A DNA stretch of 64,000 bases from Gemmatimonadota bacterium (GTDB lineage: Bacteria > Gemmatimonadota > Gemmatimonadetes > Gemmatimonadales > Gemmatimonadaceae), in assembly GCA_021324775.1 (NCBI GenBank), contig JAJPIM010000045.1:124001-188000 (forward strand), read 5' to 3'. The notes beneath the pieces were generated by a model. It saw only the letters and a list, made by a program, of their open reading frames with translations, was not told where the DNA came from and searched no databases. This document shows positions 37,458 to 52,474 of this stretch, in pieces. Position 1 is the first letter of the stretch. Each line of letters starts with the position of its first letter. A program made the position numbers and the translations under genes.

Positions 37458-38825
37458 CCACGTCGCCACCAGGGCGACCGCCGCGGCGCTCATCAGGAGC
37501 GCGGTCATGCCGCCGAACAGGTTGAGTACCCAGCCGTTTCGATGCTCACCCATCACCGCGGCGTTGTTGCACACCAGGATCACGATCACGATGAGCGGCG
37601 GCGCGAGCAGACCGTTGATCACCGCCGACCAGAACAGCATGCGGATCGGGTTGAGATGGGTGAAATCGAGGAGCGTCCCGAGCACGGTGGCGACACCGAT
37701 CAGCGTATAGAAATGCGGTGCCGCCCGCACGTGGAGGTCCATCCCACGTGCCCACCCGCGAGCCTCGGCCACGGCATATGCCGCGGACCCGGCGAGTACC
37801 GGAACGCCCAGCATGCCGGTGCCGACGATCCCGGCGGCAAAGAGCACGGATGACAGCGCCCCGGAGATCGGCCGGAGCGCCTGTGCCGCTTCCTGCGCCG
37901 TCTGGACATCGGTCAGCCCGGCCTGATGCAGTGTGGCGCCGGCGGTGAGAATGATGAAGTACATGATGCCGTTCGACAGGGTCATGCCAACGATCACATC
38001 TGCCCGCACGCCGCGAAGCTCGCGTACCACCGTGCGCCGCGGCCGGTCACCCATGTGGGCCGTGAGATGCTCGTCTTCCTCGGCGTTCTGCGCGGCCTGC
38101 CAGAAGAACAGATACGGGGAGATGGTGGTACCCAGCAGCGCCACGATCGTCAGCAGGACTCCCTTCTGCGTCAGAGACTGCGGCAGCAGTGTTCCGCGTA
38201 TGACGTCAGACAGGTGCGGATGCGCCAGGAATGCCGCGACGACATAGGCGAACAGCGACCACGTCAGCCACTTGAGGAGACGCGTCATCACCGCGTACGA
38301 CGCGAAGACGAGCAACCCCAGCACCAGCGCGGCGAAGACCGGCACGAAGATCCGCGATGGGACGCCTGTCAGCAGTGCGGCCGCCGCGCCCATGCCGCCG
38401 AGATCGGCCGCGATGTTCACGGTATTGGCGACCAGGAGCAGGCTGCAGGCAAACCAGAGTAGCCGGGCGGAATAGTGATCCCGGAGGACACTTGCGAGCC
38501 CCGCGCGCGCCACGGTGCCGATGCGGGCGCACATCAGCTGTACGGCGATCATGAGCGGCCACGTGACGAGAGCGGTCCACAGCAGCCCGTATCCGTATGC
38601 TGCGCCAGCCTGGGAATAGGTGGAGATCCCGGACGGGTCATCGTCCGCCGCCCCGGTGATCAATCCCGGGCCCAGCGTGTGTCCAATGCTCCGCAGCCTG
38701 CCAGCGAGCGAGCGCCGGTGTCCTGAACGCCCACGGGCCGCAGCGGACACGTCGCGGCGGCCCGCCTTGCCTCTCTTCGGTGGCGGGTCTCGGTCGTCTG
38801 GAGGCGCGGCGCGCAGCTCGGTCAC
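37452..38825 (-). CDS. Nramp-related divalent metal transporter (DPSG variant)
   Basis: 457 aa with about eleven membrane segments. Helix 1 carries GAADDDPSGISTYSQAGAAYGYG, where classic Mn/Fe Nramps have DPGN. Helix 6 reads LLGTTISPYLFFWQAAQNAEED instead of the MPH motif. This matches the subset of Nramp-related proteins, some of which carry Mg2+ and not only Mn2+/Fe2+. The N-terminus is a 45-residue Arg-rich tail, so a later start is possible. The ion is not predictable with confidence. Confidence 0.87.
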   Translation of the reverse strand: MTELRAAPPDDRDPPPKRGKAGRRDVSAAARGRSGHRRSLAGRLRSIGHTLGPGLITGAADDDPSGISTYSQAGAAYGYGLLWTALVTWPLMIAVQLMCARIGTVARAGLASVLRDHYSARLLWFACSLLLVANTVNIAADLGGMGAAAALLTGVPSRIFVPVFAALVLGLLVFASYAVMTRLLKWLTWSLFAYVVAAFLAHPHLSDVIRGTLLPQSLTQKGVLLTIVALLGTTISPYLFFWQAAQNAEEDEHLTAHMGDRPRRTVVRELRGVRADVIVGMTLSNGIMYFIILTAGATLHQAGLTDVQTAQEAAQALRPISGALSSVLFAAGIVGTGMLGVPVLAGSAAYAVAEARGWARGMDLHVRAAPHFYTLIGVATVLGTLLDFTHLNPIRMLFWSAVINGLLAPPLIVIVILVCNNAAVMGEHRNGWVLNLFGGMTALLMSAAAVALVATWL

Positions 38826-38894
38826 GTTCGGGAGAATCGCCCCCCGGCGCGGCCCGCGCCAGCGTCACCGCCAGCCTGACCAACGGCCTTACCA

Positions 38895-38909
38895 ACGCCC
38901 TTAGGGCGT
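38895..38909. promoter_or_regulatory. Small palindrome upstream of the Nramp-like gene
   Basis: ACGCCCT-T-AGGGCGT is a perfect 7-bp inverted repeat around one base. It overlaps the stop codon of the kinase-like gene and lies about 70 bp before the Nramp-like start. It could be a metal-regulator operator or a short transcript-end hairpin. Confidence 0.3.
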
Positions 38910-39959
38910 GACGCTGCTCCGGCCCGCCGCATTGATAGGAGTTGAACCACTCTCCAGCCCAATAGCAGAACCGGGGCCACTGGGTGCGGCGGGCACCGAA
39001 ATCACGGTTCGCTCGTCACCGTGCTGCACGCGTCCCCCGAGCGCAGTGATGAGGCGATCGGCCAGCGCGATATCGGTCATGCGTCCGGCAAGCGCGCCGT
39101 GGCTGATGGTGAGATGAACCATCGCCGCAGCCCCCGGTGCAGCGGCCGCAGCGGCCGCGCCGGCGCGATCCGAGGGGTTAGTCTCGCCACCGGTAATCCG
39201 CACGGCGTCGCCGGCAGGCGTACGGCGAATAGCATCCGTCACCAGCAGCGACAGGGCTTGCCCGAGGCGCGCCCTGTCTCCGCTGATGGCGGGCAGCCAG
39301 GGCGACAGGTCCGCACTCACCGCCACCGAGCCGCGCGCTCCTTCCGCCGCCAGTCCGGGCAGCAGCGCGGCCACGAGGTCGGTGAGCCGCACCCGCTCCG
39401 CGCGCATACGAAGTGTGCCGCGGTCGATGTCGGCGACTTGCCGCAGCCGCTCCAGCGACGCTTGCGCGTCGTCGGCGGCCGTCCGCGCCGCGGCCAGCAT
39501 CTCCTCCTGGTTGTCGTTGAGATCTCCGAACCGGTTCTCCAGGAGGATGTGGAGGGGCATCCGGATCTCGTCGAGCTGCCGGGCGGCCGCCATCGCGGCG
39601 TCGGAGACGAGCGTGCCGTATTCCTGCACCGACGCGTCCGCCCGCTGCTGGGCTCCGGCCTGTGCGGCTTCGGCCCCTGCTACTGCTCGCCGGAGCCTGT
39701 CGACTTCCTGCTCGATCGCATCCAGCTCGTCGTCGCGCATCCCCGGGCCCGGTGCGGCCAGCCGGGTGACCCGCGTCGCCACGTACCGCGTGTTGCGCCA
39801 GGCCACCACGAGCGATCCCACCGACGCGATCACGCCGACGACCACGAGCACGGTTGGCGCCTGGCGGTCGTACTGGCCCCAATAGGCCAGCCCCGCCACG
39901 GCGAACACGCCGACGATCGCCGGCACCACCGCGAGGTAGAGCCGCTGGCTGACGGTCAT
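38901..39959 (-). CDS. Pseudo-histidine-kinase membrane protein downstream of kdpD
   Basis: 352 aa. Two membrane helices (about 7-27 and 36-53) and a coiled coil (75-115) precede a DHp-like region. There the phosphorylated His is replaced: QLDEIRMPLHILL has D130 where H is expected. The ATPase-like part keeps an N-box remnant (GQALSLLVTDAIRRTP, Asn to Asp). It has no recognisable DxGxG or G2 box and ends with an Ala/Gly-rich stretch. The ATG overlaps the truncated kdpD stop as ATGA, so it is part of the kdp operon. It is best read as a signalling pseudokinase; catalytic activity is unlikely. Confidence 0.72.
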   Translation of the reverse strand: MTVSQRLYLAVVPAIVGVFAVAGLAYWGQYDRQAPTVLVVVGVIASVGSLVVAWRNTRYVATRVTRLAAPGPGMRDDELDAIEQEVDRLRRAVAGAEAAQAGAQQRADASVQEYGTLVSDAAMAAARQLDEIRMPLHILLENRFGDLNDNQEEMLAAARTAADDAQASLERLRQVADIDRGTLRMRAERVRLTDLVAALLPGLAAEGARGSVAVSADLSPWLPAISGDRARLGQALSLLVTDAIRRTPAGDAVRITGGETNPSDRAGAAAAAAAPGAAAMVHLTISHGALAGRMTDIALADRLITALGGRVQHGDERTVISVPAAPSGPGSAIGLESGSTPINAAGRSSVTP

Positions 39960-41125
39960 GGCGGCGCCGGTGTGCCTGCGCGATTCATCTCCGCGCGCGT
40001 GGGCAGGCCGACGACCAGGACATCGAGCCCTTCACTATTGTGGGTGAGCCGCTCGACAACCGATCCGTGGCGCCACCGGTGCCAGCGGGAACGCCGGCTT
40101 TGCCCCGCGATCAGCAGCGTCACGCCGCGCTCTTGCGCGAACCGCCGCAACTCGCCAGCAATGTCGGTACCGACCAGCTTGACGACCTCGGCGCCCATCG
40201 CTTGCGCGAGCTGGATGTTGTCGACCAGTTTCCGCTGCACCGTCGAGTCGATGCGCTCGGCGCTCTCCTCCGGCGTCTGGACGTACACGCAATACCAGTC
40301 CGAGTTGAGACGGCCCGCGATGCGGCTCGCCTTGCGCAGCAGGATGGCGGTATACGGGGGATTACTCGCGAGCGCGACACCGATCCGATCGACGGTCTTA
40401 GGCGCGACGACCGGTCCCGCGTCACGGCGCACGATCTCCTCGCGCGTCCGGTCCACGGAGCTCGCCACCTCCCGCAACGCGAGCTCACGGAGCGTGGTGA
40501 GGTTCTCCTCAGTGAAGAAGTTCGCCAGCGCGGCCGGCACTTTCTCCGGCCGGTAGATCTTCCCTTCCGCGAGCCGCTGCCGCAGGTCCTCGGCGGATAT
40601 GTCGATGTTCACGACCTGGTCGGCGATGGCCAGCACCCAGTCGGGCACCGTTTCGCGCACCGTGATGCCGAGGGTAGTCGCAACCACGTCGTTGAGCGAT
40701 TCCAGGTGCTGAACGTTGACGGCGGAGATGACGTTGATGCCATCGTCGATGAGCTGCATCACGTCCTCCCACCGCTTCCGGTGAGAGACTCCCGGGACGT
40801 TGGTGTGGGCCAGCTCGTCAACGATCGCCACTTCGGGACGCCGTGCGATCACTGCCTCCACATCCATCTCTTCCAGCGACACACCACGGTATTCGAGTCG
40901 CCGCCGCGGAATTACCTCGAGGTCGCCGAGCTGTGCCTCGGTCTCCGCGCGGCCGTGGGATTCCACGAACCCGACCACGATGTCGACCCCGCGCCGCCGG
41001 AGCTCGTGCGCCTCGGTCAGCATCCGGTAGGTTTTCCCGACCCCCGCAAACGATCCGATGTACAGTTTGAGCTTCCCCCGTTCGCGCGGGGTCAGGACCT
41101 CGAGGAAACTCGCGTTGTTCGTCAC
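39956..41125 (-). CDS. kdpD: KdpD sensor N-terminal half only (KdpD domain plus UspA domain)
   Basis: 389 aa. The KdpD family domain has a P-loop GSFAGVGKT at 24-32 and the blocks ESHGRAETEAQLGDLEVIPRR, VAIVDELAHTNVPGVSHRKRWEDV and INVQHLESLND-like VNVQHLESLNDVV. A UspA-like nucleotide-binding domain (about 250-389) contains LLIAGQSRRSRWHRWRHGSVVERL. It stops before any membrane or kinase domain, so it is the cytoplasmic receptor module alone. UspA domains of KdpD bind c-di-AMP in some bacteria. GTG start overlaps the barrel gene stop. Confidence 0.93.
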   Translation of the reverse strand: MTNNASFLEVLTPRERGKLKLYIGSFAGVGKTYRMLTEAHELRRRGVDIVVGFVESHGRAETEAQLGDLEVIPRRRLEYRGVSLEEMDVEAVIARRPEVAIVDELAHTNVPGVSHRKRWEDVMQLIDDGINVISAVNVQHLESLNDVVATTLGITVRETVPDWVLAIADQVVNIDISAEDLRQRLAEGKIYRPEKVPAALANFFTEENLTTLRELALREVASSVDRTREEIVRRDAGPVVAPKTVDRIGVALASNPPYTAILLRKASRIAGRLNSDWYCVYVQTPEESAERIDSTVQRKLVDNIQLAQAMGAEVVKLVGTDIAGELRRFAQERGVTLLIAGQSRRSRWHRWRHGSVVERLTHNSEGLDVLVVGLPTRAEMNRAGTPAPP

Positions 41126-42528
41126 ATCTTGACCATCATGGCGAAGTTGAAGCGCGTCTCCGTCTTTCGCAGATCCGGGGTAAAGCCCTGGACGAATGAT
41201 CCAGCCGGACCCGTGTTGCCGCCTGATGGAGTGATACCACCCGGCCCGACGAAATACGGGACATTGGCTTCGCGGTGGTTGAACTCGCCGCGAAATGTGA
41301 TGTACTCGCTCGGCATGTAATCGAAGGTTATCGACGTATCCCAGGCATTGAAATTGGTTCCGGGACTGGTGGAGAAATAGGGCGTGCCGGAGGTCGCCGT
41401 AGCGCCGTTGATCGGAGGCAGGAGGACCAGGTACCGGCCGGGATTCGTGATCGCGCCGTTGCCGAAGGTCAGGCCGAACAGGTCTTTGTGGAACCACAGG
41501 CGGTCGTAGACCATGTAGCCGAGGAAATATTGCGCCGGCCGCGCGGTGGTCCCTGTGGCGCACTGCACGCCTCCGCCTGATTCACAGCCGGCATCCAGCG
41601 TCACCGAAAAAGCCGACTTGTCGAAGAACGATGCCGGATGGTCCAGGTACTTGACCTCCACGCTGTTGTCGCTGTGCACCCGCGCGCGGGTTGGCGTATT
41701 CGGGGTGTCGTAGCCCCAGTAGTCGTTGGTGATGAGCTCGAACGAGCCGGTGGGCCGCCACAGAATCTGCGTGCCCAGCCCCGGCGCGTCATTGAAACTG
41801 GCATACGATTGCCAGCCGTTGATGATCCAGTATTCGATCTTGAGCTTGTCGCTGGGAAACGTCTGAATCCGGATGCCGTTGAAGAACCAGGGCGTGTTGG
41901 CCGACACGTACGAAGGCTGATACGCCCAGTTGTCGTAGTTATAGTAGCTGAACAGCCCGATATACGAGAGGAAGATCCCGGCATCGACGTTGATGCCGTT
42001 CCAGGCGTTGAAGTGGTACCCCCCGTACGCCTCCGAGATGTACCGATACGCATCCGCGAGATTCCATTGGCCGCGGGCGGGACTGGCATCGTCACGCGGG
42101 GTCAGCTCCGAGTACATGCCGAACTGCGTCATCAGTCGCCCGCGCACGTTGTCATAGTGGAAGTCTCCGCCGATGCCGAGTTGCTGGACCTGTACCTCGC
42201 CCGTCCGGCCGGCCTCCGCGGCTCCGTCCAGGGTGTGGTCCTTGGGATTGTCAAAGTCGGCGATGAAGTTCACGTCGGAGCGGAATTCCCCCGTGAAATA
42301 CTTCGTGTCGAGCAGCGGGCTCTTCTCACGGCTGTTGCCGGTCAGCCAGGTGAAGTCAGCAAAGGCGAATGGGTCCGGTTTCGGCGCCTTGTGTCCCGTC
42401 CGGCCCGCCGATGAGGTCGTGTCGCCAGCGTGGGCCGCCGACGAGTCGGTACCGCTTTGTGCGCCGAGCCGGGACACAGCCAGAGACAACGCGAGCGCGG
42501 TGCCGCCGATACGACATATCCTATGCAT
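41122..42528 (-). CDS. Outer-membrane beta-barrel protein in the kdp operon
   Basis: 468 aa. Signal peptide MHRICRIGGTALALSLAVSRLGAQ, with start ATG 42528 and GGAG 7 nt upstream. The remainder is rich in alternating aromatic/polar strands (FHYDNVRGRLMTQFGMYSEL, AYRYISEAYGGYHFNAWNGINVDAGIFLSYIGLFSYYNYDNW). It ends in a strand RFNFAMMVKM. This pattern fits a porin-like barrel (BBP2-type). It lies directly between kdpC and the truncated kdpD and overlaps the latter by 4 bp. It may be a potassium or general porin co-induced under K+ limitation; the fold is inferred from composition. Confidence 0.8.
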   Translation of the reverse strand: MHRICRIGGTALALSLAVSRLGAQSGTDSSAAHAGDTTSSAGRTGHKAPKPDPFAFADFTWLTGNSREKSPLLDTKYFTGEFRSDVNFIADFDNPKDHTLDGAAEAGRTGEVQVQQLGIGGDFHYDNVRGRLMTQFGMYSELTPRDDASPARGQWNLADAYRYISEAYGGYHFNAWNGINVDAGIFLSYIGLFSYYNYDNWAYQPSYVSANTPWFFNGIRIQTFPSDKLKIEYWIINGWQSYASFNDAPGLGTQILWRPTGSFELITNDYWGYDTPNTPTRARVHSDNSVEVKYLDHPASFFDKSAFSVTLDAGCESGGGVQCATGTTARPAQYFLGYMVYDRLWFHKDLFGLTFGNGAITNPGRYLVLLPPINGATATSGTPYFSTSPGTNFNAWDTSITFDYMPSEYITFRGEFNHREANVPYFVGPGGITPSGGNTGPAGSFVQGFTPDLRKTETRFNFAMMVKM

Positions 42529-42600
42529 ACACGATCTCCAGGGGTGAGCGGGGTCGTTCACACGCCGTGGTCACGAGCCGCACGGCGTCCGGTGGGTGAG

Positions 42601-43209
42601 TCAGTGCGCGGCCGGCGGTGCGGCCGGAAGGGGGAACGCCGAGTCCACAGCCAGATTGAGAAGCAACACTTTGACTCGGGGCTCGCCGAAGAGCCCGAAC
42701 TGCCGCCCCGCGGTGTGCGCAGCCACCAGCGCCCGAATCCGGTCGGGTTCGGCGTGCCGCGCCCGCGCCACGCGCGCGACCTGCAACTCGGCGTTCGCCG
42801 GCGAGATATCCGGATCGAGTCCCGACGCGGAGGCCGTCACCATGTCGGACGGGACCTGCCCTCGCACCGCGCCATCGGCCGCGACCACGCTGTCCACCGC
42901 CTGCGCGATCAGCGTGTCGGCGAGCTTCCGGTCCGTCGGCCCCTTGTTCGTGGCATTCGACGAATCGCCGACGTATCCCGACCCGGCAGCGGATGGACGC
43001 GAGTGGAAATACGAGGGTCCCGTGAACGCCTGCCCGATGAGCGCGCTGCCGACGACCCGCCCGTCGTCGCCGAGCACGAGCGAGCCACCGGCCTGCCGAG
43101 GGAACAATACGTGCGCCACGGCGGCGACCGCGCCTGGATAGACGATGCCCGTGATGACCATCAGCAGGAGCGTCATGACGAGCGCGGGACGAAGCTGGTT
43201 GCGCAGCAT
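42601..43209 (-). CDS. kdpC: Potassium-transporting ATPase subunit C
   Basis: 202 aa. One N-terminal membrane helix (ALVMTLLLMVITGIVYPGAVAAVAHVLFP) is followed by the periplasmic domain with SYFHSRPSAAGSGYVGDSSNATNKGPTD, DMVTASASGLDPDISPANAELQVARVA and FGLFGEPRVKVLLLNLAVD. KdpC stabilises the KdpFABC complex and raises ATP affinity. Spacing of 10 bp to kdpB. Confidence 0.97.
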   Translation of the reverse strand: MLRNQLRPALVMTLLLMVITGIVYPGAVAAVAHVLFPRQAGGSLVLGDDGRVVGSALIGQAFTGPSYFHSRPSAAGSGYVGDSSNATNKGPTDRKLADTLIAQAVDSVVAADGAVRGQVPSDMVTASASGLDPDISPANAELQVARVARARHAEPDRIRALVAAHTAGRQFGLFGEPRVKVLLLNLAVDSAFPLPAAPPAAH

Positions 43210-43219
43210 GTGGGAGCGG

Positions 43220-45319
43220 TCAGGTCGCGAGATGAACGGCGACGAGCAGCACGTCGATCAGCTTGATGAAGACGAACGGGACGATCACGCCGCCGACGCC
43301 GTAGACGATCAGGTTGCGGCGCAGAATCGACGCGGCGCCCATCGGGCGGTACCGCACACCGCGCAGGGCCAGCGGGATCAGTGCGATGATGATCAGCGCG
43401 TTGAAGATCACGGCCGAGAGAATGGCCGACTCGGGCGAATGCAGCCGCATGATGTTCAACGCCTGCAGCACGGGAAACGTGGCCACGAACATCGCCGGAA
43501 TGATCGCGAAATACTTCGCGACGTCGTTGGCGATCGAGAACGTCGTCAGCGAGCCGCGCGTCATGAGCAGTTGCTTCCCGATCTCCACGATCTCGATCAG
43601 CTTCGTCGGGTTGGAATCGAGGTCGATCATGTTGCCGGCTTCCTTGGCCGCCTGTGTCCCGGTGTTCATCGCGACACCCACATCGGCCTGCGCCAGCGCC
43701 GGGGCGTCGTTGGTCCCGTCCCCGGTCATGGCCACGAGCCGGCCGCCGGCCTGTTCCCGCCGGATCAGCGCCATCTTGTCCTCGGGCTTGGCTTCGGCCA
43801 GGAAATCGTCGACACCCGCCTCCTGCGCGATGGCGGCCGCGGTGAGCGGGTTGTCGCCCGTGATCATTACCGTGCGGATGCCCATGGCGCGGAGCCGGTC
43901 GAACCGCTCCCGCATGCCTCCCTTCACGATGTCCTTGAGGTAGATCACACCCAGAACGCACGCGGGTCCCGCTCCGCGCTCCGCCACGACGAGCGGCGTC
44001 CCGCCCTCGCGCGCGATGCGATCGACGACCGACCGCAGATCCGGCGGAATGACACCGTCATGTTCGCGCACCCAACGCGATACCATGTCGCCCGCGCCTT
44101 TCCGCAGTTCCCCGCCGCCGGCGAGGTTCACGCCGCTCATCCGCGTCGTCGCGCTGAAGGGGACGAACTGCACGTCCGAGCCCGTGGCTGACGCATCCGC
44201 CGTCCCGCCCTGCCCGTCGGTCAGCGACCGGCCACGCAGTCCGAACTTCTCCTTGGCGAGCACGACGATGCTACGGCCCTCCGGCGTCTCGTCGGCCAGG
44301 GACGCAAGCTGTGCCCGGTCGGCCAGCCGGTCCGGGGTGACGCCGGGCATCGGCACCATCTCGACCGCCTGCCGGTTGCCGAGGGTGATCGTGCCGGTCT
44401 TGTCGAGCAGGAGCGTATTCACATCTCCGGCGGCCTCGACGGAACGGCCACTCATGGCGATCACGTTCTGCTGGATCACGCGGTCCATTCCCGCGATGCC
44501 GATTGCCGACAGCAAGCCGCCGATCGTCGTCGGGATGAGGCAGACGAGGAGCGCGACGAGCACGGGAATCCCGATCGACGTACCGCTGTACGTCGCGAAT
44601 GGCTGCAGCGTCACGACCGCCAGCAGAAACACGATGGTCAGGCCCGAGAGGAGAATGGTCAGGGCGATCTCATTGGGTGTCTTCTGACGCTCGGCACCCT
44701 CGACCAACGCGATCATGCGATCGAGGAACGTCTCGCCAGGGTTCGCCGTGATGCGAGTGACCAGGTAGTCGGAGAGCACGCGCGTCCCGCCCGTGACGGC
44801 CGAGCGGTCGCCGCCGGATTCCCGAATCACGGGCGCGGACTCGCCGGTGATCGCCGATTCGTCGACCGACGCCACCCCCTCAATCACGTCGCCGTCACCC
44901 GGTATCACGTCGCCCGGCATGCAGAGCACCAGATCCCCGCGGCGGAGCGTCGAGGCTGCAACCACCTCGACGTCGTGCTTGCGGCCGGCCGCGGGAATGC
45001 GCTTCGCCTGTGCCTGCGTGCGCGACTTGCGAAGGGCGTCCGCCTGCGCCTTACCTCGTCCTTCCGCCATCGCTTCGGCGAAATTCGCGAACAGGACCGT
45101 GAACCACAGCCAGAGCGCGATCTGGAGCGTGAATCCGAGGTGGCCCCGTCCGCCGGTCGCATCGCGAACCAGCACCAGCGTGGTGAGCACGCTGCCGATG
45201 AGGACCACGAACATCACCGGATTTCGCACCATGTGGCGCGGCGCGAGCTTGATGAACGAGTCGCTCACCGCCCGGCGGACGATCGGCGGGTCGAAGAGCG
45301 GACGAGGGGTCGCGGCCAT
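43220..45319 (-). CDS. kdpB: Potassium-transporting ATPase subunit B (P-type ATPase)
   Basis: 699 aa catalytic subunit. TGES at 158-161 (actuator), phosphorylated D306 in [18 protein letters not shown], and the hinge [32 protein letters not shown] and [49 protein letters not shown] are all present. No motif is missing. It energises K+ uptake by KdpA at very low external K+. It starts 13 bp after kdpA. Confidence 0.98.
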
Positions 45320-45332
45320 GGAGACGAGGCGC

Positions 45333-47042
45333 CTAGAAGAGGTGACCGGCCTGCATCAACAGGTGCTCGACGACGGGTCCCAGCGCGAGCGCCGGGAAGA
45401 ACGTGAGCGCCGTGACGATCAGGATGACGCCGAGCAGCAGCGCGACGAAGAGCGGCGATGTGACCGGAAAGGTTCCCACCGTTTCGGGCGACGTCTTCCG
45501 CTCCGAGAGGAAACCGGCAAGCGCCAGCACCGGGATCTTCATCGCGAACCGGCCGAACAGCATCGCGATTGCGAAGAGCGTGTTGTAGAAGTAGGTCCCC
45601 CCAGTCAGCCCGGCGAACGCGCTGCCGTTGTTCGCCACGGTGGAACTGAACGCGTAGAGGATCTCCGAGAATCCATGGGGACCAGCGTTGTTCAGGCCCG
45701 CCAATCCGGCCGGCGTCGCGACGGCCAGGGCCGAAAAGCTGAGCACGACGAAGGCGTAGACGAGCACGTAGATCATGACCATCCGGATTTCCCGGCTCTC
45801 GATGCGCTTGCCGAGGTACTCCGGCGTGCGCCCCACCATCAGACCGGCGATGAAGACAGCGAGGATGACCTCGACCAGCATCGCGTAGAGACCTGCGCCA
45901 ACGCCCCCGAACACCAGCTCGCCCAGTTGTATGTTGACGAGAGGAACCATGCCGCCGATCGGTGTGAACGAGTCGTGCATGGCGTTGACCGCGCCGCACG
46001 ATGCGTCAGTCGTCACGGTCGCGAAGAGGGCGGAGCCGGCGATGCCGAATCACACCTCTTTCCCTTCCATGTTCCCGCCCGGATTGGTAGATGACGCCCG
46101 GACATCGATCCCACGCATCGCATGGATCGGGTTTCCGCGCGCCTCGGCCCAATACGCAGTGGTGACTCCGCCGATGAACAACACGAACATCGCCGTCCAC
46201 ACGGCCCACGCGTGGCGGCTGTTGTTCACCATCCGCCCGAACATGTAGACCAGGCCGGCGGGGATCAGGAAGATCGCCACCATCTGGAGGAAGTTCGACC
46301 AGGGCGTCGGATTCTCGAACGGATGCGCCGAGTTCACGTTGAAGAAACCGCCGCCATTGGTTCCGAGCTGCTTGATCGCCTCCTGGCTCGCGACGGGACC
46401 CATCGGCAGCGTCTGGCGCACGCCCTCGAGCGTGGTCAGGTGCACGTAGGGGTGGAAGTTCTGGATCACGCCCTGCTGCACGAACAGCAAGGCGAGGATG
46501 AACGACAGTGGGAGGAATACGTAGAGCGTCCCCCGCACCACGTCGGCGTAGAAGTTGCCAATCCGGCCGGCTGACCGGCGCGCGAGGCCACGGATGAGGG
46601 CCACCGCCGCCGCCGTGCCGACCGCCGCCGACGCGAAGTTGTGATACGCCAGTTGCGTCATCTGCGAGAGGTACGACATCGTCGTCTCGCCCGCGTACGA
46701 CTGCCAGTTGGTGTTGGTCGTGAAGGAGGCCGCGGTCTCGAACGCTTGCCGGTCAACGACGTTCGCGAGATGTTCGGGATTGAGCGGCAGGCCATGCTGC
46801 AGCCGCAAGACAGCGTAGGTGATGAGCATGCCCACCGCGCTGAACCACAACAGCGCCGCGGTATAGCGCGTCCAATGCTGGTCTTCGGCGGGCGACACGC
46901 CCGCGAGACGGTACAGCCACCGCTCGACAGGGCCGAGCCATTGCCACGTGCCGTCGAACACGCGCACGAGGTACAGGCCGGCCGGCTTCGTCAGGGCCAG
47001 CAGGACCATGGAGAACAACAGGATCTGCACCCACCCGCTCAC
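45333..47042 (-). pseudogene. kdpA: kdpA interrupted by an in-frame TGA
   Basis: KdpA forms the K+ channel-like pore of KdpFABC. The frame runs from GTG 47042 (SGWVQILLFSMVLLALTKP) to 45333 with good homology throughout, including LGTNGGGFFNVNSAHPFENP and [12 protein letters not shown] filter regions. Codon 331 (46052-46050) is TGA in the block NMEGKEV[23 protein letters not shown]. Families have an arginine there, so a single CGA to TGA change explains it. No frameshift is involved. The downstream part could restart at GTG 46016. It could be a sequencing error, a real loss, readthrough, or two peptides assembling. Confidence 0.85.
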
Positions 47043-47049
47043 GGTCACG

Positions 47050-47139
47050 TCAGAACTTTTCCGGGCGGAGGAGGGTGTAGACGAGATAGATGAGCGTGAG
47101 AACCGACGCCACGCCGCCAATCAACGTATCGGCGCTCAC
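47050..47139 (-). CDS. kdpF: KdpF stabilising peptide
   Basis: 29 aa, one membrane helix: SADTLIGGVASVLTLIYLVYTLLRPEKF. KdpF is the small subunit that stabilises the Kdp complex. It is preceded by an overlapping stop/start GTGA with the upstream 39-aa ORF and ends just before kdpA. Confidence 0.9.
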   Translation of the reverse strand: MSADTLIGGVASVLTLIYLVYTLLRPEKF

Positions 47140-47255
47140 GACTGCTCCTTGTCTTGCAGGGCCGGATCACGACCCAGGGTATCGAGACCATGCACGAAGG
47201 CCAGCATGAGCGCGAAGAACGCGATCGTGGCGGCGATGTAGATGACGTCGAGCAC
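47136..47255 (-). CDS. 39-aa membrane peptide upstream of kdpF
   Basis: Translates as DVIYIAATIAFFALMLAFV followed by HGLDTLGRDPALQDKEQS. One membrane helix and a short polar tail. The GTG start has a strong GGGGAGGAG 4 nt upstream, and the stop overlaps kdpF as GTGA. I recall similar tiny membrane ORFs before kdpF in other kdp operons. It may be an additional subunit or a leader peptide. It encodes the first product of the kdp structural operon. Confidence 0.75.
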   Translation of the reverse strand: MLDVIYIAATIAFFALMLAFVHGLDTLGRDPALQDKEQS

Positions 47256-47392
47256 CGGGCTCCTCCCCTAGCGAATGACATGAACGTCCGCTGGCGCGCA
47301 CCGGCGCATCACGAATGTTCGGTGCATGGAGGCTACGGACCGTTCCATAAAGACCGCATGAAAGGTCAGCCCGATCGCCGTGAATATTTCGT
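47256..47392 (-). promoter_or_regulatory. Probable kdp structural operon promoter region
   Basis: 137 bp between a terminator and the 39-aa ORF. It holds the most A+T-rich patch of the neighbourhood (GAAATATTCACGG and CTTTCATGCGGTCTTTATGG on the minus strand), suitable for KdpE and polymerase. No exact KdpE box can be asserted. Confidence 0.45.
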
Positions 47393-47433
47393 AAAAACCC
47401 CACGCCAACCCCCTTCGGGCGGGGTTCACGGCG
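47393..47433 (-). terminator. Rho-independent terminator after the kdp sensor kinase
   Basis: On the minus strand CGCC-GTG-AACCCC pairs with GGGGTT-GGCG around an 8-base loop (GCCCGAAG). This is followed by TGGGGTTTTT. Located between the sensor kinase stop and the kdp structural genes, it would separate the two transcripts. Confidence 0.65.
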
Positions 47434-47458
47434 CGGTCAGGGGCTTACACCCCCGGGT

Positions 47459-49147
47459 TCAGCCGCCCGTCTCGAGACTCGATAGGTCGAGTGCCGGCAC
47501 GCGAAGCGTGAAGACACTTCCCCCGCCGTCTCGAGGCTCATACGTCACGGAGCCGCCCTGGGCCACGGCAAGGCTTCGCGCGATCGACAGTCCCAGTCCG
47601 GCGCCGCCGGTGTCGGGCGGGGAGTCCGCGGGACGGTAGAACGGCTGAAAGATCCGGTCTGTCTCCGCAGCGGGAACGCCGCGCCCGCGATCGGCCACCG
47701 CAAACACCACCCACGGCCCATCACGGCGCACGCCCAGATCGATCGGGCTGGAGAGTGGCGAGAACTTGTGCGCGTTCTCGAGGAGATTGACCAGCACACG
47801 GAGCGTATCCGAGAAATCGAAACGGCCCACGATCGGCACGTCCCCGTCGGTGCTGACCGTGACGATCACGTCGCGGCCCGCCGTCCGTCCGCTCACACGC
47901 TGTAGCGCGGCGCCAACGAGGTCTTCGGCTTCATTCGCCACCGGCTCGTGCCGGTGCTCGCCGGCCTGGATACGCGACAGATCGAGCAGGTTCTCGACCA
48001 GTCCATTCAGGCGATCTGCCTCTTCCTCGATGGTCGCCGCCCGTTCGTCGCCGGATTGCGCGATCGCGTTGGCAAGTGCCTTGATCGTGGTGAGGGGCGT
48101 GCGGAGATCGTGGGACACCGATGCGAGCACCGCGTCCTTGAGTTGGTCGGCCTGGCGCAGCGCCTCCGCGTGCTCGGCATCGCGGACGAGGCGCACGCGC
48201 TCGACGCCCAGGGCCGCGTAATACGAGAGCGCGCGGAGCACGCGGCGCTGGGAGGCGCGAAGATCGAGTCCATCCTCTGCCCCGATCGCCAGCACGCCGA
48301 CGATCCTGTCCCGCACCTGAAGCGGCAGAAACATCACGCGCAAGATCTCGGGCAGCGCTCGCCGCCCGTTCGGAGGTGTGAGACTCGCCTCCGGATCTTC
48401 GGGCAACCCGCGGACGGAGGATGCCACACGCGACGTCCCGTCCATCAGTATGCTGGCCTCGGTGCCGTGCTCGGCGACCCAATGCACGAGCTGCCCCTCG
48501 GCCACGACGGCCGGACCGTCGAGTGGTCCGCCGGCCGACCGCGCCGCGAGCACAACCCGGCCGGCCCCAGGCTCCCGCATGTACACATCGCACCAGTCGA
48601 CGCCCACCGTCCCGCGAATCACCGATGCGACCGCCAGCAACGCCTCCTCGGCCCGCCCCGCATTGAGCGTCTCCGCCCCGAGCACCGCGAGCCGGTCGAT
48701 CTCCACGGTCCGGGCGCGCGCCGCGTCTGCTTCCGCACGCGCCCGGTAGAGTAGCTGCGCGGCGACGGCGCTCGTCGCGAAGAACACGATCAGCACGAGC
48801 CAGTTCAGCGGGTTCGTGATGACCAGCGTCCCGTACGGCGGCAGGAAGAACCAGTCGAACAACAGGAACGCCGCCGTCGCGAGGGCGAGGCCCAATGCGC
48901 GGCCGACGTGCGCGCTCGCCCCGAGGATGACCAGCAGGAAGAGCAACGCGACGTGGGCCTCGTTGAGTCGCGCCCGGACGGCCAGCATCCCCAGTGTGAC
49001 CACGACGAGCACCACCGTCCAGCCGATGACCGCACCCGGCCCGGCGGACTTGGGCGCCGGTACGTCGAGCGCGCTCACGGCGGCGCCCCCGTCCTGCACC
49101 GGTGACCTGGACGTGCGAGGCGTCTGGCTACCACCCGATGCCGGCAT
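47459..49147 (-). CDS. Membrane sensor histidine kinase, KdpD C-terminal-like
   Basis: 562 aa. Four membrane helices in a DUF4118-type domain (about 40-135), a GAF-like region (about 155-325), HisKA with H346 in SVSHDLRTPLTTIKALANA, and HATPase_c with NLLENAHKFSP, DRGRGVP and GGAGLGLSIARS. This is exactly the C-terminal half of a normal KdpD without its N-terminal KdpD/UspA module, which is encoded separately at 39956-41125. It starts 20 bp after the KdpE-like regulator. GTG 49078 is an alternative start. Confidence 0.92.
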   Translation of the reverse strand: MPASGGSQTPRTSRSPVQDGGAAVSALDVPAPKSAGPGAVIGWTVVLVVVTLGMLAVRARLNEAHVALLFLLVILGASAHVGRALGLALATAAFLLFDWFFLPPYGTLVITNPLNWLVLIVFFATSAVAAQLLYRARAEADAARARTVEIDRLAVLGAETLNAGRAEEALLAVASVIRGTVGVDWCDVYMREPGAGRVVLAARSAGGPLDGPAVVAEGQLVHWVAEHGTEASILMDGTSRVASSVRGLPEDPEASLTPPNGRRALPEILRVMFLPLQVRDRIVGVLAIGAEDGLDLRASQRRVLRALSYYAALGVERVRLVRDAEHAEALRQADQLKDAVLASVSHDLRTPLTTIKALANAIAQSGDERAATIEEEADRLNGLVENLLDLSRIQAGEHRHEPVANEAEDLVGAALQRVSGRTAGRDVIVTVSTDGDVPIVGRFDFSDTLRVLVNLLENAHKFSPLSSPIDLGVRRDGPWVVFAVADRGRGVPAAETDRIFQPFYRPADSPPDTGGAGLGLSIARSLAVAQGGSVTYEPRDGGGSVFTLRVPALDLSSLETGG

Positions 49148-49166
49148 CCGCAGTGGCGCGCGGTCT

Positions 49167-49928
49167 CTACGGGCGGGGCGTCCGCACGAAACGATACCCG
49201 ACGCCGGGTTCGGTCACGATCAGCCGGGGACGGACGGGGTCGCGCTCCAGCTTCTGGCGGAGGTTGCGGACATACACGCGCAGATACTGCTGCGCATCGC
49301 CCGACCCGCTGCCCCAGACGGCCCGAAAGAGCTGCGCATGCGTCATCGTCCGCCCTTCGTTCGCCGCCAGCGCCCGCAGGAGATCCCATTCGGTGCGCGT
49401 CAGATGCACGTCCGCGTCCCCCTTGGCCACCGCGGGCACCGAAAAGTCGATGAGCACGTCGCCTGCCGTGATCGCGCCGCCGGCCTCCGGGCGCAGCATG
49501 CCCGACGCCCGGCGCAGGTGCGCGCGGACGCGGGCCCTCAGTTCATCGGAGCTGAACGGCTTCGTGACGTAGTCGTCGGCGCCGGCATCGAAGAGTGCGA
49601 TCTTCTCGGCTTCACCGTGGCGCGCCGTCAGCACGATGATCGGCGCGCGCGAGCGCTCGCGGAGCGCCCGGCAGATCGCCTGCCCGTCGGCGTCCGGCAG
49701 CCCCAGATCAAGAATGATCAGATCGGGCCGTTCCGCGGAGGCCAACGCGACACCCCCGGCCCCCGTCCCAGCCTCGAGGAGCACGGTGGCTTCCCCCTCC
49801 AGCGCCGTCCGCACGACGCGCCGGATCTGTGGCTCGTCGTCGATGATCAGAACGGTCGACGGACGAGAGGGCGCAGTGGACGGAGCAACTGCCCCCGGGA
49901 CGTCGCGGACCATGGGCCAAAATACCAC
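49167..49928 (-). CDS. kdpE: KdpE-like OmpR-family response regulator
   Basis: 253 aa. Receiver: IDDEPQIRRVVRTALEG with D74 in LDLGLPDADGQ and the TKPF lysine. OmpR/PhoB winged helix: HLTRTEWDLLRALAANEGRTMTHAQLFRAVWG and YLRVYVRNLRQKLERDPVRPRLIVTEPGVGYRF. Closely matches KdpE in the receiver. It is the first gene of a two-gene unit with the sensor kinase. A start at M6 is possible. Confidence 0.93.
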   Translation of the reverse strand: MVFWPMVRDVPGAVAPSTAPSRPSTVLIIDDEPQIRRVVRTALEGEATVLLEAGTGAGGVALASAERPDLIILDLGLPDADGQAICRALRERSRAPIIVLTARHGEAEKIALFDAGADDYVTKPFSSDELRARVRAHLRRASGMLRPEAGGAITAGDVLIDFSVPAVAKGDADVHLTRTEWDLLRALAANEGRTMTHAQLFRAVWGSGSGDAQQYLRVYVRNLRQKLERDPVRPRLIVTEPGVGYRFVRTPRP

Positions 49929-50010
49929 ATGCGCCCACCCGGCAACACGACCGGGCGACGCGGCGGCGGCGCCCAGCCTTCAGCCGGGAACACGCCAGGC
50001 GTCAGGGTGA

Positions 50011-50529
50011 CTACGGTTTGGCCGGTGCCGGCTTGGTGGTATCGGCAGGCGCCTTGGTCTTTGTGGTATCGGCAGGCGCCACGTTGGTGGCGTCCAGCAC
50101 ATCGTAGAACGACAGAATGTTGGCCTGGAGGTTCCAGAGAACAGTTCCCGTCTCCGGCCCGTTGATCGTGAACTGTTGCGACCGGAACGGATACGGCTGC
50201 AACTGCGCGACGCCGAGCAGCCGGTACGGCTGTCCAAAGCTGGCGGGTGTGAATTTGAACGTCTTGTCCTTTCCGCCGGGAACGGATCCCAGCGCCTGGC
50301 GGATCCCGCTCTGGTCGACGTAGATCATGAGCTCCGTCGGGACGGTCAGATTGTTGTCGATCTCGATCGCGACGGGGTGGACATCCTGGTCGGACCCCGG
50401 GTGCTTCCCACTAGACGCGCACGCACCCACGAACATGCAGACGCCCGCCGCCAGCGCACTCGTCCCGCCCAGACGAGCAATCCGGGAAGCCCAGGGAGGA
50501 ATGGCATCGCTCCACAATTCAGCAGTCAT
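50011..50529 (-). CDS. Hypothetical lipoprotein
   Basis: 172 aa. Signal region with lipobox VGAC near residue 37. The mature part contains VAIEIDNNLTVPTELMIYVDQSGIRQALGSVPGGKDKTFKF, which looks like a compact beta fold. The C-terminus is a low-complexity (ADTTK/APA) tail made by two exact 18-bp copies (50036-50053 and 50063-50080). It is divergent from the ABC importer genes across about 140 bp. A secretory-pathway role is clear; function is not. Confidence 0.75.
   Translation of the reverse strand: MTAELWSDAIPPWASRIARLGGTSALAAGVCMFVGACASSGKHPGSDQDVHPVAIEIDNNLTVPTELMIYVDQSGIRQALGSVPGGKDKTFKFTPASFGQPYRLLGVAQLQPYPFRSQQFTINGPETGTVLWNLQANILSFYDVLDATNVAPADTTKTKAPADTTKPAPAKP
50036..50080 (-). repeat. 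Duplicated 18-bp sequence in the lipoprotein tail
   Basis: GTGGTATCGGCAGGCGCC occurs twice, 27 bp apart start to start, giving a repeated APADTTK tail. It keeps the reading frame. Confidence 0.8.
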
Positions 50530-50653
50530 CGTAGACTCCGGCTAAAGGACGGCTAGAAAACGGCGCGCGGCTGGCCATCGAAGAAAGCTCATCCAGTAAG
50601 GTGTCGACTCAGCAACGACCGCGCCACACCGGGCTCGCGCAGCCGCCAATGGC

Positions 50654-50659
50654 TATACT
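50654..50659 (+). promoter_or_regulatory. -10 box candidate for the ABC importer
   Basis: TATACT, 11 bp before the permease ATG, in an otherwise GC-rich context. It would give a very short leader. I see no good -35 hexamer at the right distance. Confidence 0.35.
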
Positions 50660-50670
50660 TTCCGGCGCGT

Positions 50671-52425
50671 ATGGCTCAGCCTATCATCCCGGTCCGGACG
50701 GCGGACGGCCGACTCGCGCCGGTCCCTCCCCGTACAACGTCCCGTTGGGTCGACGTCGCGATATTCGCGATCCTCGGCGGGTTCACGTACGGGCTCATGC
50801 GGACCGCCACCCGCTGGTCCGCACCGCTGGAACCGGGCACGCAGATCGACCTCGGCGCGATCCATCTGCCGCTCTATGCCGCGTACTCGACGCTCCGCAT
50901 GTCGATCGCGTACGTGATCTCGCTGGTGTTCAGCCTGGCGTACGCCAAGATCGCGGTCGCCAGCCGATCGGCCGAACGCGTGATGATTCCGCTGCTCGAC
51001 ATCCTCCAGAGCATTCCGATCCTGTCATTCATGCCCGCCGTCGTGCTGGGCATGGCCGCGCTGATTCCCGGCCGCACGGTCGGGCTGGAGCTTGCCGCCA
51101 TTCTGCTCATTTTCACGAGCCAGGCCTGGAACATGGCGTTCAGCTTCCACCAGTCCCTGCTCACGATCCCGCGGGAGTTGAGCGAGGCGTCCACCGTCTA
51201 CCAGCTCAGCCCGTGGCGCCGGTTCACCCGGCTGGAGCTGCCCTTCGGCGCCATCTCCCTCATCGCGAACAGCATGATGAGCTGGGCCGGTGGCTGGTTC
51301 GTGCTCACGGCCTCCGAGCAGTTCCCGCTCAAGAATCTCCGTCTCCCGGGACTCGGATCCTACCTGCAGGCGGCAGCCGACGCCGGAGACCTGTCCGCGA
51401 CACTCTTCGGCCTGGCGATGCTGATCGGCGTCATCGTCCTGCTCGATCAGTTCTTGTGGCGCCCGCTGGTCGTCTGGTCGGATCGGTTCAAGTTCGAGCA
51501 ATCCGGGGCCGCCGACGCTCCATCCTCCCGGGTCGTGGAGCTGCTCCAGGGATCGGCGCTCATCGAGTGGATGAATCTCCACGTCTGGCGGCCGGTCTGG
51601 CTGTGGCTCGATCGCACGTTCGGAAACGCGGCCGCCAGGACTCGGCGATTCACGTTGCCTGCCACGTACCGGCGCGGCGGGCGCAAGGCCGCCCGATGGG
51701 GATTGATCGGTGTGGGCGTCGCACTCGTCCTCTGGGGTGTCGTGGCGACAATCCAGGAACTCGCGGGGCTGCCCGGCGGGCAATGGGCGCACGTGTGGCT
51801 CAGCGCTGGAGCCACGCTCACACGCACGGTGATCGCGCTCGCGATCGCCGCGGCGTGGACGATCCCCGCCGGCGTCGCCATCGGTTTCAACCCGAAGTGG
51901 TCGTATCGGGCGCAGCCGCTCGTGCAGGTTGCCGCATCCGTCCCGGCGAACACCGTGTTTCCGATCCTGTTCGTCGTCCTGCTGTCCATCCCCGGCGGCC
52001 TCAACATCGCCTCGGTTCTGCTGATGCTCCTCGGTACGCAATGGTACGTGCTGTTCAACGTGATCGCAGGCGCCATGTCGATACCGTCCGACCTCCGCGA
52101 AGCCGCGGTCGTGTACCAGGTCACCGGATGGCGGCGGTGGCGAACTCTGATCCTGCCGGGGATTTTCCCGTACCTGGTGACGGGCATGATCACGGCGACG
52201 GGCGGCGCGTGGAACGCGAGCATCGTGTCCGAGTACGTCAGCTACAAGGGCCACAAGGTCATGACACTGGGCCTTGGCGCGCTGATCGCCGACTCGGCGG
52301 ACCGCGGGGACTTCCCGCTGCTGCTGGCAGGCACGCTCGTGATGGCCGCGATCGTCATCACCGGCAACCGCCTTGTCTGGCGGCGCCTGTATACTTTAGC
52401 TGAGGCGCGCTTCCGGCTGGACTGA
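50671..52425 (+). CDS. ABC importer permease, two domains fused (NitT/TauT-like)
   Basis: 584 aa made of two homologous permease halves. Each has the EAA loop: RELSEASTVYQLSPWRRFTRLELPFG in the first half and SDLREAAVVYQVTGWRRWRTLILPGIFPY in the second. Together they contain about eleven membrane helices. This fusion replaces the usual homodimer. It is followed 49 bp later by its ATPase. No substrate-binding protein is encoded in the window, so the substrate cannot be assigned. Nitrate, sulfonate and bicarbonate systems are the relatives. Confidence 0.9.
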   Translation: MAQPIIPVRTADGRLAPVPPRTTSRWVDVAIFAILGGFTYGLMRTATRWSAPLEPGTQIDLGAIHLPLYAAYSTLRMSIAYVISLVFSLAYAKIAVASRSAERVMIPLLDILQSIPILSFMPAVVLGMAALIPGRTVGLELAAILLIFTSQAWNMAFSFHQSLLTIPRELSEASTVYQLSPWRRFTRLELPFGAISLIANSMMSWAGGWFVLTASEQFPLKNLRLPGLGSYLQAAADAGDLSATLFGLAMLIGVIVLLDQFLWRPLVVWSDRFKFEQSGAADAPSSRVVELLQGSALIEWMNLHVWRPVWLWLDRTFGNAAARTRRFTLPATYRRGGRKAARWGLIGVGVALVLWGVVATIQELAGLPGGQWAHVWLSAGATLTRTVIALAIAAAWTIPAGVAIGFNPKWSYRAQPLVQVAASVPANTVFPILFVVLLSIPGGLNIASVLLMLLGTQWYVLFNVIAGAMSIPSDLREAAVVYQVTGWRRWRTLILPGIFPYLVTGMITATGGAWNASIVSEYVSYKGHKVMTLGLGALIADSADRGDFPLLLAGTLVMAAIVITGNRLVWRRLYTLAEARFRLD

Positions 52426-52474
52426 GCCAATGCGCTGCGGCCTCGTTCCCCGCCCTCTCGTGGAGATGTGATCC

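What the first reader, a model, noticed from the sequence alone, without database searches (positions are those of the whole stretch)
38901..49928. Extended kdp locus with a split KdpD, a pseudokinase and an outer-membrane barrel
Seen: transcription order is kdpE, a KdpD-C-like kinase (DUF4118-GAF-HisKA-HATPase), terminator, 39-aa ORF, kdpF, kdpA, kdpB, kdpC, beta-barrel, KdpD N-terminal domain with UspA, pseudo-histidine kinase. A normal KdpD joins receptor and kinase in one chain; here they are about 6 kb apart in separate transcripts. The last three genes overlap by 4 bp each. Known: KdpD senses K+ limitation and KdpE activates kdpFABC. Inference: the N-domain (P-loop plus UspA) may signal to the kinase in trans, possibly through the pseudokinase. 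The barrel may let K+ cross the outer membrane. Together this would be an envelope-wide potassium scavenging system. I have a recollection of barrel-containing kdp loci in Bacteroidota, so novelty of that part is uncertain.
Basis: partly seen in the sequence, partly recalled or inferred. Interest (0 to 1): 0.75.

Follow-up and report, generated by a model that had tools for sequence, protein, structure and literature searches.

The report
Potassium pump locus with retired kinase
In a Gemmatimonadota bacterium, the genes for a potassium pump travel with a split sensor whose front half is probably a brake on the pump and is tied to a histidine kinase that has lost its active site; the split is already known, but the dedicated dead-kinase partner appears to be new.

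Summary
The gene order described is real. The own genome holds one KdpD domain and no full-length KdpD. The split itself is published: KdpD/Usp on one chain, TM/GAF/DHp-CA on another, and the N-terminal half is an atypical serine kinase acting on the KdpB TGES motif (PMC11018627). The front half here keeps those motifs and KdpB keeps TGES, so it most likely brakes the pump.

The new element is the last gene: a histidine-kinase fold without the phospho-acceptor His or N box in any of 44 copies, yet under purifying selection. In a sample of 395 Gemmatimonadota genomes it lies beside short KdpD in 44 of 47 short-KdpD genomes and in none of 14 with full-length KdpD. It often overlaps KdpD(N) by 4 bp and is fused to it in two genomes. 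Its nearest active relatives found are kdp-linked HAMP-PAS kinases. I read it as a retired kinase kept as the serine kinase's partner.

The barrel is a BBP2 porin that also occurs in loci with full-length KdpD. A small membrane-peptide gene precedes kdpF, with similar ORFs in four other genera.

The parts
49167..49928 (-). kdpE, OmpR-type response regulator
   Evidence: Pfam Response_reg + Trans_reg_C; best NCBIfam hit KdpE, 230 bits, below its cut-off of 325
47459..49147 (-). KdpD C-half kinase (DUF4118-GAF-HisKA-HATPase), active-site motifs present
   Evidence: Pfam; VSHDLRTPL, DRGRG and GAGLG read directly in the sequence
47395..47460 (-). terminator-like hairpin ending in a T run, between the kinase and the pump operon
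   Evidence: fold of 47388-47462, -38.9 kcal/mol, z -2.9; not listed by the simple scan
47379..47395 (-). candidate KdpE operator, direct repeat TTNRYG-N5-TTNACG
   Evidence: only match in the window, 0.20 expected; same repeat upstream of the operon in 22 of 35 loci, 24 sites against 0.09 expected; pattern chosen after looking at 9 of the 35
47136..47255 (-). 39-aa single-TM peptide gene upstream of kdpF
   Evidence: no Pfam or NCBIfam match; found in 32 of 32 pseudokinase loci with coverage; similar ORFs before kdpF in four of five named plasmid loci
47050..47139 (-). kdpF
   Evidence: PF09604, E 2e-9
45333..47048 (-). kdpA with an in-frame TGA stop at 46050-46052
43220..45319 (-). kdpB with TGES motif (predicted serine-kinase target)
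   Evidence: TIGR01497 1079 bits; TGES in 47 of 48 kdpB frames over 900 bits in the loci
42601..43209 (-). kdpC
   Evidence: PF02669, E 3e-66
41122..42528 (-). BBP2 (PF07642) outer-membrane barrel, the only BBP2 found in the genome
   Evidence: 142 bits; single match
39956..41125 (-). KdpD N-half (KdpD + Usp), predicted stand-alone serine kinase for KdpB
   Evidence: PF02702 313 bits; NF038185 KdpD-like non-kinase best NCBIfam hit, 381 bits, cut-off 550; Walker A GSFAGVGKTY and Walker B VDELA in its sequence
38901..39959 (-). pseudo-histidine kinase: two N-terminal helices long enough for TM, coiled coil, DHp and CA-like domain without catalytic residues

Best explanation
The locus is a split-KdpD Kdp system in which the two KdpD activities run on separate chains. 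Transcription branch: the DUF4118-GAF kinase and KdpE switch on the up39-kdpFABC-barrel-KdpD(N)-pseudokinase operon at low K+, through a direct-repeat operator just after the terminator (inferred). Post-translational branch: KdpD(N) is an atypical serine kinase that phosphorylates the TGES serine of KdpB and shuts the pump when K+ is plentiful (inferred from homology with a published activity). The pseudokinase descends from a kdp-linked HAMP-PAS histidine kinase that lost its phospho-acceptor, N box and G boxes (sequence evidence). It is kept as a dedicated non-catalytic partner of KdpD(N) (supported by linkage, overlap and fusion, not biochemically). It supplies dimerisation, in most lineages membrane tethering, and perhaps the on/off input that a full-length KdpD gets from its own C-half (inferred). 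The barrel is an accessory porin co-expressed with the pump (inferred).
For: One KdpD domain in the genome. In 395 phylum genomes, 61 have a KdpD domain over cut-off; I count 14 full-length and 47 short. The pseudokinase profile gives 158 to 442 bits in 44 genomes and 96 bits for the next; all 44 are short-KdpD genomes and none of the 14 full-length ones is among them. The two genes are adjacent in all 44 fetched loci, and a single open frame carries the profile to its end in all 44. They are fused in one frame in G206 and G309. A start codon sits at exactly -4 from the KdpD(N) stop in 13 of 16 relatives. Catalytic His: 0 of 44 at its place or within two residues; N box 0 of 44; one DxGxG and one GxGLG-like string in two different copies. 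dN/dS 0.28, 0.19, 0.12 against three close relatives. HK fold: pLDDT 82.6; PDB matches GacS, DivL, HK853, RetS at E 9e-13 to 7e-12. The KdpD(N) tree puts the 43 pseudokinase rows used plus G023 in one clade, 100/99. In G060 and G222, the two short-KdpD genomes outside that clade, the best match to the profile is the kinase beside kdp, a HAMP-PAS-HisKA-HATPase protein with intact motifs. kdpE plus the DUF4118 kinase lie upstream in 26 of 29 loci with 3 kb of coverage. Of the 43 pseudokinase-type KdpD(N) rows, 41 have Walker A and 40 the DE motif; two of the misses are fragments. KdpB TGES 47 of 48.
Against: No expression, binding or phosphorylation data exist for any of it here. The KdpD N-terminal domain of E. 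coli is active alone (PMC11018627), so a partner is not needed for catalysis. In 6 of 44 copies the profile match starts only after the TM part, and in two more part of it is missing, so tethering is not a universal job. Three copies (L032, L135, L139) have a His four residues behind the aligned acceptor place, in HDLD, not in an HxxRTPL context. The fused protein's model was too poor to show an interface (pLDDT 51.8). G023 lacks the gene; its locus looks damaged (kdpA in two frames; one stop listed inside its KdpD match). kdpA in this very genome is interrupted, so the pump may be dead here. Three of 29 loci lack an adjacent kinase and kdpE, though matches to the DUF4118 kinase with its N-terminal part occur elsewhere in those genomes.
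Confidence: 0.6

Rival explanations
1. The pseudokinase joins the two branches: its DHp helices pair with the DUF4118 kinase or hold KdpE, so KdpD(N) signals to transcription in trans.
For: The kinase and kdpE sit upstream in 26 of 29 covered pseudokinase loci; DHp domains dimerise (family knowledge).
Against: The pseudokinase profile and the single DUF4118 kinase sequence compare weakly (hhalign probability 4.9, E 0.008 over 124 columns). In G222 its nearest kin stands with a regulator that I read as NtrC-like, not OmpR-type. The overlaps and fusions seen are with KdpD(N); none with the kinase was seen in the loci.
Confidence: 0.15
2. KdpD(N) is controlled by c-di-AMP through its Usp domain, as shown for Deinococcus geothermalis, and the pseudokinase is only a membrane anchor or chaperone.
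For: The own genome has a DAC domain. All three short-KdpD genomes without pseudokinase have one. PMC11018627 shows c-di-AMP control in Deinococcus.
Against: 20 of 44 pseudokinase genomes have no detected DAC domain, 10 of these 20 being 96-100% complete, so c-di-AMP is unlikely to be the common input. The contrast 24 of 44 against 3 of 3 is too small to prove anything. In 6 of 44 the TM part is absent.
Confidence: 0.2
3. The pseudokinase is a decaying remnant with no function.
For: Catalytic residues lost; highest dN of the operon genes compared; absent in G023.
Against: Kept in 44 genomes, with one open frame to the end of the profile in all 44, dN/dS 0.12-0.28, a conserved DHp loop (invariant L, F, G, L, N, Q, E among 17 rows) and two fusions.
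Confidence: 0.05

Closest known systems
Split KdpD of Deinococcus radiodurans / D. geothermalis (PMC5716572, PMC11018627)
   Same: KdpD/Usp chain encoded after kdpC, separate kinase and response regulator; serine-kinase motifs
   Different: In the D. radiodurans record examined there is no barrel between kdpC and KdpD(N) and the next gene is an unnamed hypothetical without a pseudokinase profile match in the listed hits; the kinase operon is divergent there
Full-length KdpD of E. coli
   Same: Same domain set if the two chains are added together
   Different: One chain in E. coli; here ASK and HK are separate and a third, non-catalytic HK-like protein is added
NCBIfam NF038185 KdpD-like non-kinase potassium sensor
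   Same: Best NCBIfam match of KdpD(N), nearly whole length
   Different: 381 bits, below the curated cut-off of 550
Non-canonical or degenerate histidine kinases such as DivL and RetS (both in the fold listing; their biology is recalled) and Spo0B (recalled)
   Same: HK fold with altered or unused phospho-acceptor site
   Different: Those act on other kinases or phosphorelays (recalled); here the partner is predicted to be a serine kinase
BBP2 / OmpL-like porin (PF07642)
   Same: Family match over most of the profile
   Different: Sits inside kdp operons; my paper search listing showed no paper on a kdp-linked barrel (12 of 66 papers listed)

Membership tests
Short KdpD with atypical serine kinase (Silberberg 2024 class) | KdpD domain plus Usp, no DHp-CA on the same chain | tested here: met
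Short KdpD with atypical serine kinase (Silberberg 2024 class) | Walker A G-X5-GKT, Walker B DE, KdpB TGES | tested here: met
   window: GSFAGVGKTY, VDELA, TGES; relatives: Walker A 41 of 43 rows, DE 40 of 43, TGES 47 of 48
Short KdpD with atypical serine kinase (Silberberg 2024 class) | Phosphorylates KdpB serine | not testable with these tools
   needs biochemistry
NF038185 KdpD non-kinase | Score over curated cut-off 550 | tested here: not met
   380.7 bits
Histidine kinase (for the last gene) | Phospho-acceptor His in DHp | tested here: not met
   0 of 44 at the aligned place or within two residues
Histidine kinase (for the last gene) | N box and G boxes for ATP | tested here: not met
   N-box pattern 0 of 44; isolated G-box-like strings in 2
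Histidine kinase (for the last gene) | DHp-CA fold | tested here: met
   (predicted model)
KdpD/KdpE two-component system (kinase and KdpE here) | DUF4118-GAF-HisKA-HATPase with intact His, and OmpR-type regulator | tested here: met
NCBIfam KdpE equivalog (NF007820) | Score over curated cut-off 325 | tested here: not met
   230.4 bits
BBP2 porin PF07642 | Score over gathering cut-off 26.2 | tested here: met
   142 bits

The most novel reading that the evidence does not exclude
A histidine kinase that once drove kdp transcription was stripped of all phospho-signalling and rebuilt as the obligate regulatory subunit of a serine kinase: the pseudokinase senses the K+ state and allosterically switches KdpD(N) on KdpB, replacing both the C-half of KdpD and c-di-AMP as input.
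Probability: 0.35. Interest if true: 0.75.

Novelty: new variant of a known kind. Interest (0 to 1): 0.52.

Why it matters
PMC11018627 says that control of KdpD's serine-kinase activity remains to be further characterised. Here 20 of 44 genomes with a short KdpD have no detected c-di-AMP cyclase domain, so another input seems needed, and a genetically locked partner protein is at hand. If it proves to be that input, it would be a case of a two-component kinase retired into a non-phosphorylating subunit of a serine kinase. The naturally fused proteins and the forms without TM helices make this directly testable.

Tried and rejected
A riboswitch in the leader: no Rfam match up to E 1 from 37000 to 52000. 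Fusion model to see the interface: too poor to use, so no fold search was run with it. The pseudokinase as a copy of the DUF4118 kinase: rejected on weak similarity. Anti-phage defence: no PADLOC match for the pseudokinase or the barrel. Survey in other phyla: limited to the motif scan of genome contigs, because a centre outside the own phylum was not accepted. That scan gave 39 loci: 34 with Gemmatimonad titles and one titled only bacterium; one (L150, 81% identical) titled Gammaproteobacteria, probably a misbinned contig; three weak matches from Chloroflexi, Gastranaerophilales and Anaerolineae, which I take for ordinary kinases. It used one seven-residue pattern, so it would miss diverged members.

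Correction made on the way: I first took the D of LDEIR as the place of the catalytic His. The profile alignment with the active G060 kinase moved it seven residues upstream, and recounted it; the conserved His at the later position is shared with that active kinase and is not evidence of a moved acceptor. The operator pattern was chosen after reading 9 of 35 upstream regions; 8 of those 9 and 14 of the 26 not read carry it. The DAC contrast between genomes with and without pseudokinase is too small to count. The start nearest -4 was chosen, so the 13 of 16 is availability of a start there. One search lists one stop inside 9 of its 44 strong matches; one search shows that in all 44 loci one frame without stops carries the profile to its end. 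The tree's bootstrap had not settled, and the branch between full-length and short KdpD is weak, 82/38.

Papers: PMC11018627 abstract, section 8 whole, section 9 part 1 of 2, and passages; PMC5716572 abstract, outline and passages; PMC8552747 passages; all others search listings only. That the pseudokinase, the up39 peptide and a kdp-linked barrel are not in print rests on the listings and on the passages named, in an open-access library only.
Full report
What is there. The locus reads, in transcription order, kdpE, a DUF4118-GAF-HisKA-HATPase kinase, a terminator-like hairpin, a candidate operator, a 39-aa single-TM peptide gene, kdpF, kdpA, kdpB, kdpC, a BBP2 barrel, KdpD(N)-Usp, and a pseudo-histidine kinase. 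The genome has one KdpD domain, so no full-length KdpD is elsewhere in the 98%-complete assembly. The kdpA frame is cut by a TGA at 46052-46050; in 46 of 48 other kdpA rows that column is Arg. The part behind the stop still shows dN/dS of 0.12 and 0.06 against two relatives, so the stop is recent or an assembly error.

The split is known. PMC11018627 reports that KdpD's N-terminal domain is an atypical serine kinase that phosphorylates KdpB S162 and inhibits the pump at high K+. It also reports that some species carry this activity and the histidine kinase on separate chains, the commonest pairing being KdpD/Usp with TM/GAF/DHpCA, and that in Deinococcus radiodurans, Anabaena and Alicyclobacillus the serine-kinase chain is kept downstream of the pump. 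PMC5716572 describes the split in D. radiodurans. The KdpD(N) here has the Walker motifs and KdpB has TGES; so do nearly all relatives.

The pseudokinase is the informative gene. In 395 genomes of the phylum, drawn evenly from a larger group, the KdpD domain is over cut-off in 61. By frame length and by the kinase in the same frame I count 14 full-length and 47 short, some of the short ones being contig-edge or frame-broken fragments (G185, G300, G384). The pseudokinase profile A1 gives 158 to 442 bits in 44 genomes; the next match has 96 bits. All 44 belong to the short class; G023, G222 and G060 are the short ones without it. In the fetched loci the pseudokinase lies beside KdpD(N) in all 44, and one open frame carries the profile to its end in all 44. 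A start codon at -4 from the KdpD(N) stop is present in 13 of 16 (I chose the start nearest -4, so read this as availability). In G206 and G309 the two are one open frame.

What it is. The model has two N-terminal helices long enough to span the membrane, a long coiled coil into a DHp hairpin and a CA-like domain, mean pLDDT 82.6. The listed PDB matches are histidine kinases. At the place of the phospho-acceptor, fixed by alignment to the active G060 kinase, 0 of 44 have His, nor within two residues; three copies have a His four residues later in an HDLD string. No N-box pattern is found; one DxGxG and one GxGLG-like string occur in two different sequences. dN/dS against G001, G002 and the L150 contig is 0.28, 0.19 and 0.12. 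The profile is matched from its TM start in 36 of 44; in 6 the match starts after the TM part, among them both fused forms. It is thus a conserved non-catalytic protein, membrane-bound in most lineages.

Where it came from. In G060 and G222 the best match to the profile is the kinase beside kdp itself, a HAMP-PAS-HisKA-HATPase protein with intact motifs. Only 5 candidates per genome were scored, out of 53 and 66. In G222 a regulator that I read as NtrC-like follows KdpD(N). The KdpD(N) tree puts the 43 pseudokinase rows used and G023 together (100/99), with G060 and G222 as their sister pair. A single origin by decay of such a kinase, with one loss in G023, is the simplest history. The DUF4118 kinase does not look like its source.

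How it likely works. Full-length KdpD places serine kinase, Usp, membrane and DHp in one chain; E. coli KdpD's serine kinase responds to K+ when kept in lipid discs (PMC11018627). The pseudokinase rebuilds much of that arrangement for a short KdpD without histidine chemistry. A common c-di-AMP input is unlikely: of the 44 pseudokinase genomes, 24 have a DAC domain and 20 have none found. The three short genomes without pseudokinase all have DAC, and 6 of 15 full-length genomes do (the 14 plus G028, which is outside the 395). Transcription is assigned to the kinase/KdpE pair: they lie upstream in 26 of 29 covered loci, divergent in two. The three without them (G006, G100, G264) have matches to the kinase, N-terminal part included, elsewhere.

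Barrel. It is a BBP2 porin, the only one found in this genome. Among 60 relatives, 23 of 27 kdp loci have one inside the operon, in split and full-length types alike; 13 of 33 genomes without a KdpD match have a BBP2 too (my reading). In pseudokinase loci, 36 of 41 with coverage have a barrel or a gap over 1 kb between kdpC and KdpD(N); the ORFs checked in two loci with no or a weak barrel call were BBP2 (L032, L036). It is a frequent companion of Kdp, not part of the split. Passage of K+ is a guess.

Operator and peptide. A direct repeat TTNRYG-N5-TTNACG lies before the operon in 22 of 35 loci, 24 sites against 0.09 expected from the rest of the same loci, with the caveat on choice given in Tried and rejected. 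The peptide before kdpF is found in 32 of 32 pseudokinase loci with coverage, and also in G023 and two full-length loci, but in none of the other full-length loci that show a kdpF, nor in G060 or G222. In 4 of 5 named plasmid loci the best match to its profile is an ORF directly before kdpF: Caballeronia E 4e-5, Deinococcus 0.03, Novosphingobium 0.04, Streptomyces 0.06; Allomeiothermus none. All but the first are weak scores; their position carries the argument. It has no Pfam or NCBIfam family.

Verdict. The split is already known; the barrel is a common neighbour. The linked, often overlapping and sometimes fused pseudokinase partner of the KdpD serine kinase is a new variant, found so far only in Gemmatimonadota or contigs that look like them.

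Noticed in passing
window 46050-46052 (-): In-frame TGA in kdpA where 46 of 48 other rows encode Arg; recent nonsense change or assembly error.
   Followed up: partly
window 47136-47255 (-); L192:3917-4195; L191:6163-6369; L193:4279-4467; L194:2628-2717: Unnamed single-TM peptide gene directly before kdpF in several phyla; a second copy in Caballeronia (L192:1767-1871) is annotated 'potassium ABC transporter ATPase'. Possibly an overlooked small Kdp subunit or regulator.
   Followed up: partly
L147 (G348): A second, lower-scoring kdpC and kdpA lie between the barrel and KdpD(N), and another barrel lies upstream of the peptide gene.
   Followed up: no
L040, L129, L045, L132: The DUF4118 kinase matches in two pieces in short frames (349-493 aa), as if the GAF domain were missing; in L040 and L129 kdpE and the kinase are divergent from the pump operon.
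   Followed up: no
L150: Contig titled Gammaproteobacteria carries a pseudokinase 81% identical to the window's; probably misbinned.
   Followed up: no
window 50671-53851 (+): Two ORFs that read like a double-length ABC permease and an ATPase with an extra C-terminal domain, divergent from kdpE; family not searched.
   Followed up: no
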